This document shows, one piece after another, positions 45,506 through 53,235 of a DNA stretch of 64,000 nt. Source of the DNA: Pontederia crassipes (Eukaryota; Streptophyta; Magnoliopsida; Commelinales; Pontederiaceae); contig CM060198.1 of assembly GCA_030549335.1 (NCBI GenBank), forward strand, positions 56,677,995-56,741,994, in the 5' to 3' direction. A model generated the notes under the pieces. The model saw nothing but the letters and a program-made list of their open reading frames with translations. It was not told the DNA's origin and made no database searches. Made by a program: the position numbers and the translations under genes. How positions within the stretch are numbered: the first letter of the stretch is position 1; each line of letters starts with the position of its first letter.

Positions 45506-45794
45506 ATGCGATCTTAGGATGAGGATTCCGGCGCGCCGGTCGTCGCAATCGGAGGAGCAACGAGGAGAACCTCCGACGCCATACTTTTCTCCGGCGGACT
45601 CTTCAGCCGCCGATTATGATGGCGTCGCCGCCGTTGAAGATGATTTGGCATCCTCAGTGCCGCCGCGCCGGCCCCCCTGTTGGCCTGCGGAACCTCGGGA
45701 ACTCATGCTACCTCAACAGCGTCCTCCAGTGTCTCACGTACACACCTCCCCTTGCACAGTTTTGCCTCGCTTCGCAGCACTCCTCTATTTGTAA
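45506..45794 (+). promoter_or_regulatory. Upstream open reading frames in the UBP25 leader
   Basis: A 4-codon ORF (ATG CGA TCT TAG, 45506-45517) is followed two bases later by a 91-codon ORF starting at 45519. The longer ORF runs past the true start at 45616 in another frame. If transcription begins upstream of 45506, both would precede the main start and could lower translation. The transcription start is not known. Confidence 0.45.
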
Positions 45795-48700
45795 GTATTC
45801 GGCCCGCATGACCCTCGCTCTTCGATAAATTTCCCTCTGCCGAATTCTTCGATATTTGGAGTCAGTGAAAACTACTAGTTTTATCTGGGGTTTTGTTGAT
45901 TCGTTCCTGTTAGGTAAGTTTTCGTCTGCGAATCGAGAAAAGGAGTGCCCTTTTTGCATACTCGAGCGGCAGATCACGCGATCCCTGAGTCTCGATGGTC
46001 CACTCGACGCGCCGTCCAAGTTCCAGCGCTGCCTCGCCCTCTTCGCCGAGAACTTCCGCTGGGGTCGCCAGGAGGACGCCCACGAGTTCCTCCGCTATGT
46101 CATCGACGCCTGTCACAACGCCTGTCTCAAACTACTCAAACGCCGTGCTTCTACCCCTGTCGGTAGCGTGACCAATGGAGTTGTCTCGAATGGTGCTGCT
46201 GCAACGGCCAAGACGATTTTGAATCATGAAGCTGGCGGGCCTAGCACGGTGATGAAAGAGATATTTGGTGGGGCGTTACTCAGCCAGGTGAAGTGCCTCG
46301 CCTGCAAGGGGGATTCAAACAAAACCGATGAGATTATGGACCTCTGTCTGGACCTTTTCCAGAGCAACTCGTTGAAGGATGCTTTGTTCCGGTTTTTCCA
46401 GCCAGAGGTTTTAGACGGCGATAATAAGTACAACTGCAGCAGGTAAGAGCCAGCATTCCCAAGTTCTTTTCATGTTCTTCTGTTATGTCTATGGTTGAAA
46501 TAGTTCAATTGAATTGATCATGTTCTGCCTCAGATGTAAGAAACTCTCTGTAGCTAGGAAGCAAATGTTCATACTTGGATCCCCCAATGTGCTTGTCATC
46601 CAGCTCAAGGTGATCATCATTGTTTTCTCTTTTTATTTCTCTCATTTTGTGTGCTCTAAAAATTACTAAATGGACAAATGCACTTCTTGAATAGAGATTT
46701 GAAGGCATACATGGTGGGAAGATCAACAAGAACATTGAATTTGAGGAGGTTCTTATGCTCTCAAATTTTATGGCTAAGCCAAACCAGGTTGGTGTGTACA
46801 AAATTACTCCTTTTCTTTGGTCATTGATAGATTACACGAAATGTGAAGCAATAGGATTTTCCAATCAGGGTGACAGCTCATGCAAGCTGCATTATTTGTA
46901 TGGTTAATGGTTATGAACTCGATCATTTATGACCCTAAACTTATATCAGGTTTCACACAATAATGCAGAATTATTTGCTTCATATGATATGCTAAGTTCA
47001 ATGGTCTAAGACTTCGTCATTTTTGTATTTCTTGATTGAATTCATTCACAAAAATTTGGACGCCAAAAACTTTGAAATAAAATTGAACCACTGGCTGAAA
47101 GTTGTTCTCAACTTGCTGTGGTGCCTTCTTGATTTTATGAATTATCCTATAGCCAAATTCTTATCACAAGGAAGTTTGTATACCCAAGAACAAGCTTGTA
47201 ATATTAGAGGTAGCATAATTGAGATTGAAAAGTTTCTTGTGCAAAAGGAGAGACAGTTGGCATCTCCTGACAGGGACAGGAACAGCTTTTGAGAATTCCT
47301 GATGAATATCACTATTAAGGTTATTGCTGTTGGTGGAATTTACCCGATTTTTATTCCCCTAAAGAGGATCTAGAGCTTGGTCTTGGGTATGTGGTTAGTT
47401 CTATTAGTTGAAGAGCGATGTCAGGACATGGAGATGGTGGTTTGCGGTGTTTCTTTTATCCTTTCCTTTTTTGTGCATTTCTTGTTCAGGCAACTCCAGT
47501 CATCTTTAGTTACTTAGAGGCCCTTGCTGTGTCTGTGGTTAGTGCTATTAGCTGAAGAGTGAGCTGCATTGTGTCTTTTGTCCTTTCCTTTTGCGTGGAT
47601 TTCTTGTTTCAGGCCATTCCAGTAACCTAGTGTTCATTTGTAGGATTTAGGATAATCTTACTCGAGATTTTTATTGTAATGCTGGATTTTGGTTTTTTTG
47701 TACTTCTTTTCTTTCTGTTATTTCTTAAAGTATGACTTCTTTTTGGTCGAATATTAAAGTATGACTTGTCACCTTTCCTTTGTGGTAATTTATCATCAGT
47801 TGATTACAATGTTGTTGGTTTTTAGGATCCACGGCCTGAGTATAACCTAATTGGAAGCATTGTGCATTCAGGCTTCTCACTGGAATCTGGGCATTATTAT
47901 GCTTACATCAAGGTATTAACAAAGTCCGCTTCAGTGTTTTCCCTTTAGTATTTCCTTTCTGATGACGATGACAGTATTACATCCATTTTACATTTTCCCA
48001 AATGTACAGGATGCATCTGGACAGTGGTATTGCTGTAATGATGCTCATGTTTCCCTTTCAAGCACAGAAGAGGTTTTGTCAGAAAAAGCATATATCCTTT
48101 TTTATCTACGCCGTAATCAATGCCCAAAACCAAATAAGACCAGTGCTTGCAAGCCATTGAAGATGCTGGATGCAAATGGAGCTAACGTTATATCTGCAGA
48201 AAGTTTAAAACCAGCAATCACAAAGCCCAATGGGTTGTCATCTAAAGCTACTATTTCTATTGTGCTCAAGAATGGCAAAGTATCCTCAGGTGTACAAATT
48301 AAACAAACTGGCTTGAAAATTTCTGTGTTAAGGAGAGATTTTCCTAATAGTAATGATGTTAGTGGAGCTGAACATAGCTCTTCAGCTACAACCAAGAATG
48401 ATAAGAAAGTGTGGACATTGGCGTCAAGTGAAATTGCTGCTAACATGACCATCTCTTCTGCTGCATTACATCAGAACACACAGAAGTCATATGGCAGTGA
48501 GTTTGCTAGATCATTGGCAATAGAAGAACATGTAGATAGCATTAATCATAGAATTGCAACTACAGAAAAGGAACTTGAGAGTACTCATTCAGCAACTAAT
48601 GGGGCAAGTTGGTCCAACAGTGTTGTGCTATCTGTTAACCAAGAGTCATGCAATGATAAGCCACCTGAAAGTTCAGTTCTCCGCACTAAAGTATCGGGTG

Positions 48701-49866
48701 ACGTGTTGGCTGAAAATGGCATATGCAAAATTCTGAGGGTGAATGGCAAAAGGAAATCACAGAATGATTGTCAATGTGTTATAGAAGAGTAAGTATCTAA
48801 TGTTTTAACTACATGATGAACTTCTGTGCTTTCGGTGAACTATGATACTTTTAATGGGCAATTAATTTGCAAAGGATATCACTTATTAAAGTGCATGAAA
48901 ACATGCATATGCAGCACATTGTTAGCAATTCTTAAGATGCCATGTTTTTCTATCTTGTATTGATGGTGATGATTTTGTCAGACTTGCCAAAGAAGCCTCT
49001 TCAGGACTACAATCTTGTGGCTGGGTGGATGATGTGCAAAATTACATGTATGCTAGAAAAAAGACATTGTGCGTGCAAGCAACAGGCGGTTCAGATTTTA
49101 ATTTGATCAAGTAAGAGCAATGTACTGCTTCTGTGTAAGCAATATACTACTGAATATGCATCTCATGTCCTGAATTCGAAATGAGGCTAGTGGTATGCTT
49201 GTTTGCTCAAATTCATTGTGTGTAGTAGCAGATTGCATTTGGATATTCCTTTGCATACGTGGTTGCAGAGTAACATGTTAGGATGCTTCATTCTATAACC
49301 TTTTCTTTTATTCTCTTAAGTCTAGATTTGCTTAATATTTAAATCTGTTGTGTCTGATGGCAACTGATATGCTATTAAACATGCTAAATAGTTGTTAGAT
49401 CTCTTGTTGCACTTGGTTTTCAATTTATGCCCTTTGCTGACTTGTTTCTCTGGAAGAGTTAATGTCCTTCCCGTATGATTTTCTTATTTAAAGTTAACAA
49501 ATTCAATTGATTACAAGTTGATTTGCTGATCTGATGGAACGCTTAAACAATAGCTACCCTAATAGCTGCTTCAGCAGCTGCATTAATAAACATTGAGAAA
49601 ATGTCTCTTTTTTTTACAAGTAAATAAATATTTAGAATAGCGTTATATTTTCTTTATATATCTGCAACATAATACTTTTGTAGTCCAGGGAGGTTTATAG
49701 CATCAGAGTAGTAGCTTATTTATGAATTTTTATATGTCGTGACAGGAAACAGTTAATAATGGATGCAAAGAAGACTTTCAACTCTCAAATTCCAGTATCA
49801 CTAAAGGGACACCTCTTTCGACGGCTCATGCATCTTGCTGAAGAAAAGCTTTTGTTGGATTCTTAA
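45616..49866 (+). CDS. UBP25: Ubiquitin-specific protease, UBP25-like (deubiquitinase)
   Basis: Cysteine protease that removes ubiquitin from proteins. The exons are 45616-45790, 45914-46442, 46534-46609, 46695-46787, 47826-47912, 48010-48788, 48982-49110 and 49746-49866, giving 1989 nt, or 662 aa (Arabidopsis UBP25 is about 661). The start MMASPPLKMIWHP aligns with the UBP25 N-terminus. An in-frame TGA at 45520 with no intervening ATG excludes an earlier start. The Cys box is GLRNLGNSCYLNS (Cys31). Two CxxC pairs (C186/C189 and C233/C236) suit the zinc ribbon of the fingers region. The His box is SGHYYAYIK (His314) and the acid is CCND (Asp331). The region after about residue 360 is poorly conserved, as in the family. 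It lies head-to-head with glycolate oxidase. Confidence 0.95.
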
Positions 49867-49878
49867 ATCACCTACAGT

Positions 49879-49988
49879 GGTACTACGCTCAATTTTTTTT
49901 TATGTTTTGGTGGACAACTTTCTATGATAATTGGTACTACGCTCAATTTTTTTTTATGTTTTGGTGGACTTAACTTTCTATGATAATA
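49879..49988. repeat. 54-bp tandem duplication after the UBP25 stop
   Basis: The unit from GGTACTACGCTCAATTTT to the AACTTTCTATGATAATT block occurs at 49879 and 49933. The second copy has a short insertion. It lies in the probable 3' untranslated region, 12 bases after the stop codon. Confidence 0.9.
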
Positions 49989-50092
49989 CTTCTCCAGAAA
50001 TTTTTGAAAGATTTAGTCCTGTCGTCATCCTTAACGTATTCTTCTTTTTACATTTTGAGCCTTATAGCTATCCTGGTGTATATGCTGCGGGA

Positions 50093-50526
50093 TTATCAAG
50101 TGTTAATTTGTTTGCAGTGCAAATTGCTCTAGGTATGAACAGAATCCTGATAAATTTTTCTTGCCATAGTCAAAAAAATAAGAAAAAAAAATCTTGTTGT
50201 TTGGTTTGCAAGTTTGTGGGATTTGTCTCTCCATTTTTTAAGTTTTCACCAGGTACATGTGAGAAGCCTCATTGAGTTCCTATCCACATCTGTCCATGGA
50301 AATTTGCAATTTTGAGGCCTGAAAATTTTCCTTTGATTTGGAAAATTTATGCAGACCAAACATGTAAACCAAACAACTTAAAAAATGGAGAGACAAATCC
50401 CACAAACTTGCAAACCAAACAACAAGATTTTTTTTTCTTATTTTTTTGACTATGGCAAGAAAAATTTATCAGGATTCTGTTCATACCTAGAGCAATTTGC
50501 ACTGCAAACAAATTAACACTTGATAA
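50093..50526. repeat. Perfect 150-bp inverted repeat in the UBP25 3' flank
   Basis: The arms at 50093-50242 and 50377-50526 appear to be exact reverse complements over all 150 bp, including homopolymer lengths (9 A / 9 T and 7 A / 7 T). The spacer is 134 bp. The right arm is part of the retro-insertion at 50356-50720. The left arm begins 226 bases after the UBP25 stop. Confidence 0.93.
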
Positions 50527-50720
50527 CTCCGCCTATATTTTATAGCCGGTCCCAAGCCCGGATAAAGGAGGAGGGTTGTGTTAGGCCCCGACAGCCAGCA
50601 TAAAATCATGTCGAATCTTATGAACATGGATCAACGAATATAGGAATGGCGTCGTATGATCCATGTAGCCGACCCCACCTAGTGGGATAAGGCTTTGTTG
50701 TTGTTGTTGTTGTTGTTGTT
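50356..50720 (+). mobile_element. Chimeric retro-insertion: inverted local DNA plus SINE/LINE 3' end with (TTG)n tail
   Basis: The 365-bp insert is bounded by a 16-bp target duplication, GGAAAATTTATGCAGA (50340-50355 and 50721-50736). From left to right it holds a 21-bp filler, a 150-bp inverted copy of 50093-50242, and about 194 bp of non-LTR element ending CCACCTAGTGGGATAAGGC then (TTG)n. That tail is the one shared by plant Au-type SINEs and RTE-clade LINEs. The structure fits target-primed reverse transcription with a template jump onto nearby DNA. Confidence 0.8.
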
Positions 50721-50736
50721 GGAAAATTTATGCAGA

Positions 50737-53235
50737 ATTACATTCTGATGTAAGATATCTTTTTTACAATGGTGCCGATGCTCAATTTCTGGAGGAAGTT
50801 CTTTACCTTTTTGCAACCTATGATGATTGATGCAATCTGGAATTACTGTGAGCTATTAATTTAAATGAATTTATGTGAATTTGGCTTTCATATTTACACT
50901 TGTCTGATCTTTTTGATTACTCATCACAATATTCTGAAATTTTTGAGAGGGCACAAGATTCTGAATTAAGTGGGCAACATTTATTTGATTCATAAGTTAT
51001 ATCTTTTCTAGGCACATTTATAAGGTACTGTCATGGTTCAATCTATGAAGCATATTTTGTTCCTTTCTTTTTTTTAATTCTTGTCTTGGTTCTTTAATTT
51101 TTCCTTGATATATTTATCTTTCATATATCTTTTAGTTATAACCTATGCTCTTTGGCATTGCATGCATAGGATGACAGTGAATTTGTAATTTTCTGCTATA
51201 AAAATTTCTTAATGATGTTTCAAAAAAAAGTTTCTTAATGAACTTTTTGTTTCTGATTGATTGTGAATGTTTTTATATCGCTGGTGACAACAGAGATTTA
51301 GATGATGAATAATGTCACTAGTTTGAGATATTGGCATTTATCAGCATATGGGATATAATATAGGGATGTATCAAATTGATAATAACTTGCTACTCCTTTC
51401 CAAGACCTACTCATTGTTTATTTGTGCAGATTTCTAATTGTTCGCATTCTTTGATCCAGCACAATACTGTGTCATACTTTGTTGAATCAGACCCTTATTC
51501 TGCAAAGTCAACCTTGTAGTTATATGGTAACAGATACTGATAAACTCTCTCATTGGCTTCATTTGGATATTGTTGGTTATTCTATGAGTTATTGCTTAGC
51601 CGTCCAAACTGTTTGATGGTTACAAGATGACCTGTTATATGAAGGGAAAAAGTGGTAACTTTTTCATTGTTAAAAGTAATTCAATCTTGACAAAGAATGA
51701 CTTATTGTTGTTTGATTGCTTTCTTGTTGTTACTCCTTATAACACTAAGGTTTTTTTAGGGGAATAACACATTGAGCTATGAATAAATGATGGCCATGTC
51801 TTGCTGCTCCTTTGTCTTCTTTTGCCTTTTTTGATAGTTATCATTTTCAGAGAGTAAAACTATGACCTGTGTTATACTTAGGGGGACATCTTCTTCAACC
51901 TGCTTGGTGATTGTGAATGCCTCGTTTTTTCCCCTCCTGCAAAAGATGAGAATCAGGTATTTCGTGCATCAGATCTGCAAGCTTTCTTTGCTTTCCCAAG
52001 ATTGTCAAAACTGAATCTGTTTAACACTCTAACTTATGTCATCATCACTATTAAACATCTAACTTCAGGGAGTGTATCTCAGAAATGCTAATTTGCATTC
52101 ATTTAGGTTGTTTAATTGCTATCAGTGGATATATCTACATAAGTAAAATCTATGCTAATAGGAACATCTGTTTAGCAGAATAGAATTCAGATAAGGGTAA
52201 TTGCACTATTCAAAAACTTGAAAGACAATTGAAGGAGAGGAGTGAAACGAGTTTTACAATTTTGTGGAAGTTCTCTTGGGAAAATTAGATGGCACTAGGT
52301 TTGCAGTCAATCGGAAGGGATTGTCATGCGGCTCATGCCTTTGTGCTCCTCCGTTAAAAAGCAGACAACTTTGCTTACGATTGCCTATTATATGTTTACT
52401 ACTTTCCCATCTAACATGAAGTATTTAGTGATCCAGATCTTCTAGTTTCCAAATGTTGATACTGATTCGAGTTTGAGTTCTGATTCATGCTTTCATTTAT
52501 GTATAAGCCAATGAACAGAGAGATTGTCCCATTTTCCTTTAGCAACAGGGGGAAGTGTCTACTAAAGAGATTTTACCATGTAGTGCCTAGAACACAGATA
52601 TTGCCTCCAAAATATGTAGGACACAGCAAGTCATGCACTCGTTCTATTAAAAGGCTTATGGATGCACCCATTGAACCTTCCACGTATTTTGTGATGCTCA
52701 TTCAGCTTGTTCTCGAATAGAAGTTTCTACATCTTAGAGAGAGAGAGAGAGAGCCGGCGTGTAGTTTTGAGGACTGTATAAAAAGAAGTGTATATGCAAA
52801 GTGTGCACTGCTCATTCTTGTATTTATGTTATAGTCGTCAATTCCTTTTTATTCTGCAGTTGAATCCTCTGTTTGGCTTCTGGTTCTCCGACTGAAAAAT
52901 GTGAATCTACCACTGACAATAATGTCAGGAAATAAGAGAATAACTTTCGAGATCGGAATAGCAATTTGATTGTGATTCTGAGTTGGTCTCCAATTTTGTT
53001 ATCTTACAAATTAGTTTCTCAACTGTACAGCCAATTTATTGATGCGAGTCGTGTGGTGAGGGTGATCGCAACGCATCAGGTAATCCACATGCGAACCGTT
53101 CTAATTTGGAAAAAAATGACAATGAAAAAAAATGAACTAAAAAAGAGAAGACCTTTTCTTTGTTTTGAACAATAAATCTTTTTTAATATCCGTGGGAGCA
53201 ATTTGTCTACGTGTCATGTTTGTCACATCTAAAAT
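50737..53235. other. Gene-free region downstream of UBP25
   Basis: AT-rich, T-rich on the plus strand, with only short open frames. A (GA)n run lies at about 52738-52753. No gene or bounded transposon is recognised. Confidence 0.45.

What the first reader, a model, noticed from the sequence alone, without database searches (positions are those of the whole stretch)
50093..50736. Retro-insertion that carries a perfect inverted copy of its own neighbourhood, making a 150-bp hairpin at the UBP25 3' end
Seen: 150-bp arms (50093-50242, 50377-50526) with no mismatch found by eye; right arm fused to a SINE/LINE 3' end with (TTG)n tail; the whole 365-bp insert flanked by the 16-bp duplication GGAAAATTTATGCAGA. 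Inference: during target-primed reverse transcription the cDNA end left its RNA and copied genomic DNA about 100-260 bp away. The 21-bp filler (50356-50376) resembles part of the arm read in reverse, suggesting a second short jump. This is unlike ordinary LINE 5' inversion, where the inverted piece belongs to the LINE. It creates a de novo inverted repeat next to a housekeeping gene; if transcribed with UBP25 it would fold into 150 bp of perfect dsRNA, a possible origin route for hairpin siRNA loci.
Basis: partly seen in the sequence, partly recalled or inferred. Interest (0 to 1): 0.8.

Follow-up and report, generated by a model that had tools for sequence, protein, structure and literature searches.

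The report
Foldback inverted repeat beside retroelement insertion
A short retroelement landed next to a ubiquitin-protease gene in what is probably a plant genome and, while its front end was being sealed, the broken chromosome end apparently folded back and copied 152 bp of neighbouring DNA in reverse, leaving a ready-made hairpin; a second case in the same genome suggests that this is rare but recurrent.

Summary
Confirmed: perfect inverted arms, 152 bp (50093-50244 / 50375-50526), lie inside a 365-bp insert with an exact 16-18 bp target-site duplication (TSD). A paralogous C15 segment is the empty site: left arm present, target once, no insert. The right arm shares the window's private variants, so it was copied from this locus after the paralogs split. 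The element is not 5'-truncated: it is a ~196-bp, apparently internally deleted form of an RTE-type LINE, and its 5' end (A50525) coincides with the expected cut of a twister-P1-like motif (just below Rfam's cut-off). Best reading: a target-primed insertion whose 5' side was sealed after the target's 3' overhang folded back, primed two short aborted copies (the filler) and one long copy of the flank. Bases 50356-50377 are fully covered by 7-mers of the inverted left flank (3 of 20,000 shuffles match this). Of 225 family copies tested, one other (L102) shows the same: 89-bp perfect arms around its TSD, with an empty sister site. Human somatic L1 shows this class at 0.3% (Nam 2023). So a known kind of event, here readable base by base, with a hairpin 226 bp past a stop codon. 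Which 3' end led synthesis, and small-RNA effects, remain open.

The parts
50093..50244 (+). Left arm: ancestral flanking DNA, template of the inverted copy
   Evidence: Collinear in the paralogous empty site L003; identical to the reverse complement of the right arm
50338..50355 (+). Left target-site duplication, (TT)GGAAAATTTATGCAGA
   Evidence: Exact repeat of 50719-50736; single in the aligned L003 site
50356..50374 (+). Filler: two short inverted copies of 50196-50210 (CCAAACA; AAACCAAACAAC, whose last AAC overlaps the arm to 50377) with TGT between
   Evidence: Pieces match only the left flank, inverted, within 49801-50355 and 50737-51300; 50356-50377 covered 22/22 by 7-mers of the inverted flank 50093-50355, 3 of 20,000 shuffles
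50375..50526 (-). Right arm: 152-bp inverted copy of 50093-50244
   Evidence: 0 mismatches
50525..50720 (+). Non-autonomous RTE-type element, complete at its 5' end (AACTCCGCC), with (TTG)n tail; bases 50525-50526 (AA) are shared with the arm
   Evidence: Other copies stop matching here; TSD abuts this base with 0 nt between in 94 of 162 full-length copies; 58-bp 3' end shared with a LINE that encodes a reverse transcriptase
50520..50579 (+). Twister-P1-like motif at the element's 5' end; expected cut U50524|A50525 (cut site recalled)
   Evidence: RF03160, 66.2 bits (gathering 67.2), E 1.6e-14; the window copy and five others, 6 of 6, scored 62.1-66.2 bits
50719..50736 (+). Right target-site duplication
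45523..49866 (+). Ubiquitin-specific protease gene (partial span; last exon ending with a stop at 49866 assumed to belong to it)
   Evidence: UCH matches in two open stretches, 45523-45828 and 45829-46446; stop codon read from the sequence

Best explanation
A non-autonomous RTE-type element inserted by target-primed reverse transcription about 0.5 kb past the stop codon of a ubiquitin-protease gene. First-strand cDNA was primed at the right side and ran to the end of the element RNA, an end that may be made by a twister ribozyme. At the left side the exposed 3' overhang of the target (...TTTATGCAGA-3') did not join the cDNA directly, as it does in more than half of the full-length copies examined. 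It folded back on its own strand, annealed to TTTGCA at 50205-50210 and copied 7 nt. It slipped, re-annealed at the same place and copied about 12 nt, then moved by an AAC microhomology to 50242-50244 and copied 149 nt outward to 50093. That end was then joined to the cDNA end with a 2-nt AA overlap. The result is a TSD-flanked insert = filler + inverted flank + element. Shown: structure, empty site, local origin, source and orientation of the filler. Inferred: the order of steps, the strand that primed, and the polymerase (Pol theta or Pol delta are candidates from general knowledge).
For: Empty site in L003. Right arm identical to the left arm, also where the left arm differs from L003 (10 mismatches and a 2-base gap in 148 aligned bases). 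The filler pieces were found only in the left flank and only inverted (searched: 49801-50355 and 50737-51300, both strands). Bases 50356-50377: 22 of 22 covered by 7-mers of the inverted flank, 0 of 22 by the direct flank, reached by 3 of 20,000 shuffles; longest exact match 12, reached by 49 of 20,000 shuffles and by 1 of 3,000 random window 22-mers. Second case L102: 89-bp perfect arms, loop = its 11-nt TSD, on the element's 5' side, and a sister locus without arm and element. 94 of 162 full-length copies have 0 nt between TSD and element, so the insert sits exactly at the normal junction. The same class is reported for 3 human somatic L1 insertions, 0.3%, with 52-220 bp of extra synthesis (PMC10191854). 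Yeast foldback insertions at breaks share the anatomy: 41-nt loop, median 2-bp overlap at the far end (PMC11724301 section 15).
Against: The TGCAGA priming site alone is weak: 144 of 5,000 shuffles of the 7 filler bases give a match as good. Sequence alone cannot tell which 3' end led the synthesis; a cDNA-led order gives the same product. Foldback to 50210 needs about 150-260 nt of single-stranded DNA, which is not shown. In L102 a third TSD copy sits between arm and element, which suggests a second cut or an extra copying step there, and its arm starts exactly at the TSD border with at most 1 nt of priming overlap. The parse of the filler is post hoc. Only two cases are known here.
Confidence: 0.6

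Rival explanations
1. cDNA-led template switch: at the end of the element RNA the cDNA 3' end annealed by TT to the bottom strand of the left flank at 50093, copied 152 bp towards the target, made short further jumps and was sealed to the left end.
For: Same product. The element RNA was copied to its end, where reverse transcriptases can jump; 10 of 162 full-length copies show an 11-26 nt re-copied element head, which I read as jumps at that end. In L102 the arm ends exactly at the TSD border, as expected if copying ran off the nicked bottom strand. GCGG plus TT similarity at the landing site.
Against: It needs a single-stranded bottom strand at the left end. One filler join would rest on a 1-nt overlap, against a 4-nt match with one wobble in the foldback order (my reading).
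Confidence: 0.24
2. Two events: an ordinary insertion first, then a later break or endonuclease re-cut at the left TSD/element border repaired by foldback.
For: L102 has three TSD copies, as expected if the regenerated target was cut again.
Against: In the window the arm lies exactly between TSD and element base 1, with only two TSD copies; a random later break would rarely hit that border.
Confidence: 0.09
3. The reverse transcriptase switched to an antisense RNA transcribed from the neighbourhood.
For: Co-insertion of a nearby precursor mRNA is reported once for L1 (PMC10191854 section 11).
Against: It needs an antisense transcript whose 3' end lies near 50093; several short steps, all within one flank, look more like local DNA synthesis.
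Confidence: 0.05
4. Assembly or library foldback artefact.
For: Perfect arms are also a signature of chimeric reads (general knowledge; no call).
Against: The arm is continuous with an element, a TSD and filler; L102 shows the same at another locus. No reads were available.
Confidence: 0.02

Closest known systems
Foldback inversion upstream of the target site in human somatic L1 insertions (Nam et al. 2023, PMC10191854; passages and the whole of section 11 seen)
   Same: TPRT insertion with TSD and an inverted duplication of 5' flanking DNA, about 52-220 bp, 0.3% (n = 3); attributed there to extra DNA synthesis in the final resolution
   Different: Human, somatic, LINE-1; here a reference genome of another (probably plant) organism and an RTE-type derivative, with a base-level multi-step filler and a paralogous empty site
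Local foldback insertions at double-strand breaks in yeast (Yu et al. 2024, PMC11724301; abstract and section 15 seen)
   Same: 3' end folds back at an imperfect inverted microhomology, copies its own flank, far end joined with a median 2-bp overlap
   Different: HO-endonuclease break, copies mostly about 5-34 bp, no retroelement
Twin-priming 5' inversion of LINEs (recalled; named in PMC10191854)
   Same: Synthesis from the overhang at the 5' side of the insertion
   Different: The inverted piece is element sequence there; here it is flanking DNA
Inverted-duplication model of plant MIRNA origin (PMC3237417; search listing and start of abstract only)
   Same: A de novo near-perfect hairpin
   Different: No small-RNA evidence here; the model as I recall it concerns inverted copies of target genes
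Truncated twister ribozymes at the 5' end of RTE retrotransposons (one sentence in PMC7761336, passages seen, as work in preparation)
   Same: Twister-P1-like motif at the element's 5' end
   Different: Here also on a short derivative in thousands of copies; activity untested

Membership tests
Target-primed (LINE-mediated) insertion | Flanking TSD and a 3' tail | tested here: met
   16-18 bp TSD, (TTG)n tail
Target-primed (LINE-mediated) insertion | Empty site with one target copy | tested here: met
   L003 on C15
Foldback inversion at the 5' side of a retro-insertion (Nam class 2) | Inverted copy of the flank upstream of the target, at the element's 5' end | tested here: met
   152 bp, 0 mismatches; second case L102, 89 bp, 0 mismatches
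Foldback inversion at the 5' side of a retro-insertion (Nam class 2) | Synthesis primed by the target overhang, by a DNA polymerase | tested here: inconclusive
   The microhomology parse favours it only moderately
Twin-priming inversion | Inverted segment belongs to the element | tested here: not met
   The inverted segment is flank, present in the empty site
MITE or palindromic DNA transposon | Arms belong to a repeated element | tested here: not met
   Arm sequence found only here and at the paralogous site among the scored matches (40 of 1,153 candidates scored)
tRNA-headed SINE | 5' tRNA-like head | tested here: not met
   No tRNA family among the Rfam matches (E up to 1) to 49800-51000; the head equals the start of a longer element. 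ARAGORN was not run
Twister-P1 ribozyme (RF03160) | Score at or above the gathering cut-off | tested here: not met
   Window 66.2 against 67.2 bits; 0 of 5 other loci reached the cut-off; 6 of 6 loci (window copy included) have E up to 3.8e-12
Twister-P1 ribozyme (RF03160) | Self-cleavage | not testable with these tools
   Indirect: the normal TSD-element junction falls on the base after the expected cut (94 of 162 at 0 nt). The base before the cut is not conserved: T in 18 of 50 TSD-adjacent copies, as in the flank background of 0.40
RTE-clade LINE partner | Reverse transcriptase ORF running into the shared 3' end | tested here: met
   L026: PF00078, E 2.9e-37, shared 58-bp 3' end. The clade name RTE is recalled; no tree was made
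MIRNA / hairpin siRNA locus | Processed small RNAs | not testable with these tools
   Only the fold and a sub-threshold MIR8007 match, 74.4 against 195 bits

The most novel reading that the evidence does not exclude
Sealing of retroelement 5' ends by overhang foldback is a standing, low-rate generator of perfect hairpins made of host flanking DNA in this genome. At the rate seen (1 of 224 other copies tested; 95% interval 0.01-2.5%) a family of about 27,000 copies would have made about a hundred (interval 3 to 660, by multiplication), some transcribed with genes and able to seed hairpin siRNA or MIRNA loci.
Probability: 0.3. Interest if true: 0.75.

Novelty: new variant of a known kind. Interest (0 to 1): 0.52.

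Why it matters
It documents at base level, with an empty site and an independent second case, a way for a retroelement insertion to make a perfect inverted repeat out of ordinary host DNA. That bears on two open matters: how the 5' end of a target-primed insertion is closed, and where new hairpin loci come from. Both become testable genome-wide in a family with thousands of copies whose RNA 5' end may be fixed by a ribozyme.

Tried and rejected
MITE or palindromic transposon: rejected, because the arm was found only here and at the paralog. Plain two-mismatch copy of 50196-50216 as the filler: possible, but it leaves one unexplained base and two errors in 21 nt against none in 152; two short copies preferred. 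Known miRNA: the MIR8007, MIR2655 and MIR538 matches are below their gathering scores. Other inverted hits of the family scan (20 bp or more, 80% or more) were dropped: L175 (two elements head to head), L176 (palindrome in the flank, TSD adjacent), L194 (CCGG-rich palindrome; its TSD is doubtful for the same reason), L015/L016 (one place, 31 bp, 84%), L119 (22 bp). The earlier, laxer scan of 138 copies also listed short or weak inverted hits (L007, L010, L023, L083, L107, L108, L110, L116; 20-51 bp, 74-90%), not pursued. 41 of 162 full-length copies had no TSD by my rule and were not classed further; L102 itself falls just under that rule (score 14.5, limit 15) and its TSD was assigned by eye. 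The survey is not random: best matches, plus the first places on C1 and C2; 94 loci had only 430 bp of upstream DNA, so longer foldbacks would be missed. In counts of copies that begin at element base 1 (77 of 147; 155 of 233) the query itself began there and 94 loci were picked by their head, so I rest the fixed 5' end and on TSD adjacency instead. Source of the extra 5' sequence in L071 and L063: searches not answered. PMC12350158 (passages) gave nothing on flank-inverted insertions. No small-RNA, RNA-seq, long-read, population or other-species data were available; the species is not identified, and 'plant' is an inference from gene and repeat types, not tested.

Full report
WHAT IS THERE. 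The window lies at C16:56677995-56741994 of a 1.13-Gb, 43-contig genome. The arms 50093-50244 and 50375-50526 are 152 bp and exactly complementary. The 365-bp insert (50356-50720) is flanked by GGAAAATTTATGCAGA, or 18 bp if the TT shared with the tail is counted. In order it holds a filler, the inverted arm, and an element with a (TTG)n tail. The upstream gene has UCH matches in two open stretches. A stop codon ends at 49866, 226 bp before the left arm.

EMPTY SITE AND ORIGIN OF THE ARM. A paralogous segment on C15 (L003; BLAST blocks 88% and 89% identical on the two sides) carries the left arm collinearly and the target once, and has neither inverted arm nor element. The left arm differs from its C15 counterpart by 10 mismatches and a 2-base gap in 148 aligned bases, while the two window arms are identical. 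So the right arm was copied from this locus, after the paralogs split. For 0 of 152 differences the 95% upper bound of divergence is 2.0%; gene conversion between arms could make the event look younger.

THE ELEMENT. Copies stop resembling the window at the base A50525 (AACTCCGCC): whose query began in the arm, most of the element matches start within a few bases of it, and five copies aligned have unrelated sequence upstream. In 94 of 162 full-length copies the TSD abuts this base with 0 nt between (48 of 83 before head-selected loci were added). Rfam finds a type-P1 twister motif over this end: window 66.2 bits, gathering cut-off 67.2, E 1.6e-14; the window copy and five others, 6 of 6, score 62.1-66.2 bits, and none of the five others reaches the cut-off. 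The expected twister cut, between U and A of the UAA at the start of the motif (recalled), falls exactly at the shared 5' end. Against a general claim of activity, the base before the cut is not conserved (T in 18 of 50 TSD-adjacent copies, flank background 0.40). The 3' 58 bp are shared with a LINE whose ORF has a reverse transcriptase domain. Of 94 loci fetched by the 56-base head, 19 lacked a full short copy, and 12 of those 19 run into one common longer body (my count). No single locus was seen with head and intact ORF together, so the reading that the short element is an internally deleted RTE-type LINE is inference; L197 joins the head to the LINE's 3' coding end. Genome-wide there are 26,821 matches to a 41-base 3' end (up to 2 mismatches) and 6,851 to the 56-base head (up to 1 mismatch). 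PMC7761336 (passages) says that truncated but competent twisters are conserved at the 5' end of RTE elements, as work in preparation.

HOW OTHER COPIES ARE JOINED. Of 162 full-length copies, 94 have 0 nt between TSD and element, 7 have 1-3 nt, 20 have more (window included), and 41 had no TSD by my rule. Ten of 162 carry a second, partial copy (11-26 nt) of the element's head directly upstream, which I read as jumping at the RNA end. Some extra 5' pieces look like read-through from a source locus: 200 of the 212 extra bases of L167 also occur at two other places (98-100%; what follows them there was not looked at), and L065 and L066, as well as L046 and L062, share upstream sequence.

A SECOND CASE. 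In 225 copies with at least 150 bp of upstream DNA, an inverted copy of flank lying between TSD and element was found in two: the window and L102. L102 has 89-bp arms without mismatch around an 11-nt loop, which is its TSD TTATTCTTTTA; another TSD copy (one T shared with the arm) precedes its truncated element and a third follows the tail. A sister locus on C2 (L233, 88-96% identical in blocks) has the target once at the site and neither arm nor element, although it differs by a 37-base gap beside the site. As the window was chosen for the feature, the unbiased count is 1 of 224 (95% interval 0.01-2.5%), from a sample that is not random.

HOW IT PROBABLY FORMED. Bases 50356-50377 (19 filler bases and the first three of the arm) are covered entirely by 7-mers or longer of the inverted left flank, and by none of the direct flank; 3 of 20,000 shuffles do as well; the longest exact match, 12, is reached by 49 of 20,000 shuffles and by 1 of 3,000 random window 22-mers. 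The pieces are found only in the left flank and only inverted. They read as follows. TSD end TGCAGA pairs with 50205-50210 with one wobble and copies CCAAACA. Then come TGT, a second start at the same place (copying AAACCAAACAAC), an AAC step to 50242-50244, 149 nt of copying to 50093, and a 2-nt AA overlap with the element end. This is what a folded-back 3' overhang would do. The first priming match alone is only suggestive (144 of 5,000 shuffles). A cDNA-led order cannot be excluded; the arm of L102 ending at its TSD border could even favour it, as run-off at the nick. The enzyme is unknown.

WHAT IS KNOWN. Nam et al. 2023 (PMC10191854; passages and section 11 seen) report foldback inversion upstream of the target in 3 human somatic L1 insertions (0.3%; about 1,200 in all, derived from their 354 = 29.5%) and together with element inversion in 1, with about 52-220 bp of extra synthesis. 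Yu et al. 2024 (PMC11724301; abstract and section 15 seen) show foldback insertions at yeast breaks with a 41-nt loop and a median 2-bp overlap at the far end. The event is therefore of a known kind. My searches for a plant or SINE report of it showed none in the titles and abstract starts listed (9 of 10 papers listed; 14 of 14; 20 of 108; 15 of 15; 10 of 24; 12 of 47). Most subscription papers are not in that library, so absence from print is not shown.

CONSEQUENCE. As RNA the locus would fold into the long stem (-288.5 kcal/mol, shuffle mean -91.55). Whether it is transcribed or diced is unknown. Any link to MIRNA birth is inference.

The fixed 5' end of the element is now rested (TSD adjacency) and not on the count of alignments that begin at base 1, because that query began there. 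'Fixed in a plant genome' was withdrawn: one assembly, species unknown.

Noticed in passing
window 50520-50579; L004-L008: Twister-P1-like motif (just below Rfam's cut-off) at the 5' end of a very abundant non-autonomous RTE-type element; the usual TSD-element junction falls at the expected cut. Possible ribozyme-processed SINE-like family.
   Followed up: partly
L024, L054, L077, L091, L177, L179, L192, L201, L213, L225: Ten of 162 full-length copies carry a partial re-copied element head (11-26 nt) directly upstream, mostly ending near head bases 17-20 or 25-26; L138, a longer copy, has one too.
   Followed up: partly
L167, L065/L066, L046/L062, L071, L063: Extra sequence upstream of the element, in part shared between loci: possible 5' transduction by uncleaved read-through transcripts.
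   Followed up: partly
L102 (C1:4823485-4824585): Second flank-inverted insertion: 89-bp perfect arms, loop equals the TSD, TSD present three times.
   Followed up: yes
window 49878-49987: A 54-base tandem duplication just after the stop codon, absent as such from the aligned C15 paralog.
   Followed up: no
L197: Twister-like head fused to the LINE's 3' coding end: another internal-deletion derivative.
   Followed up: no
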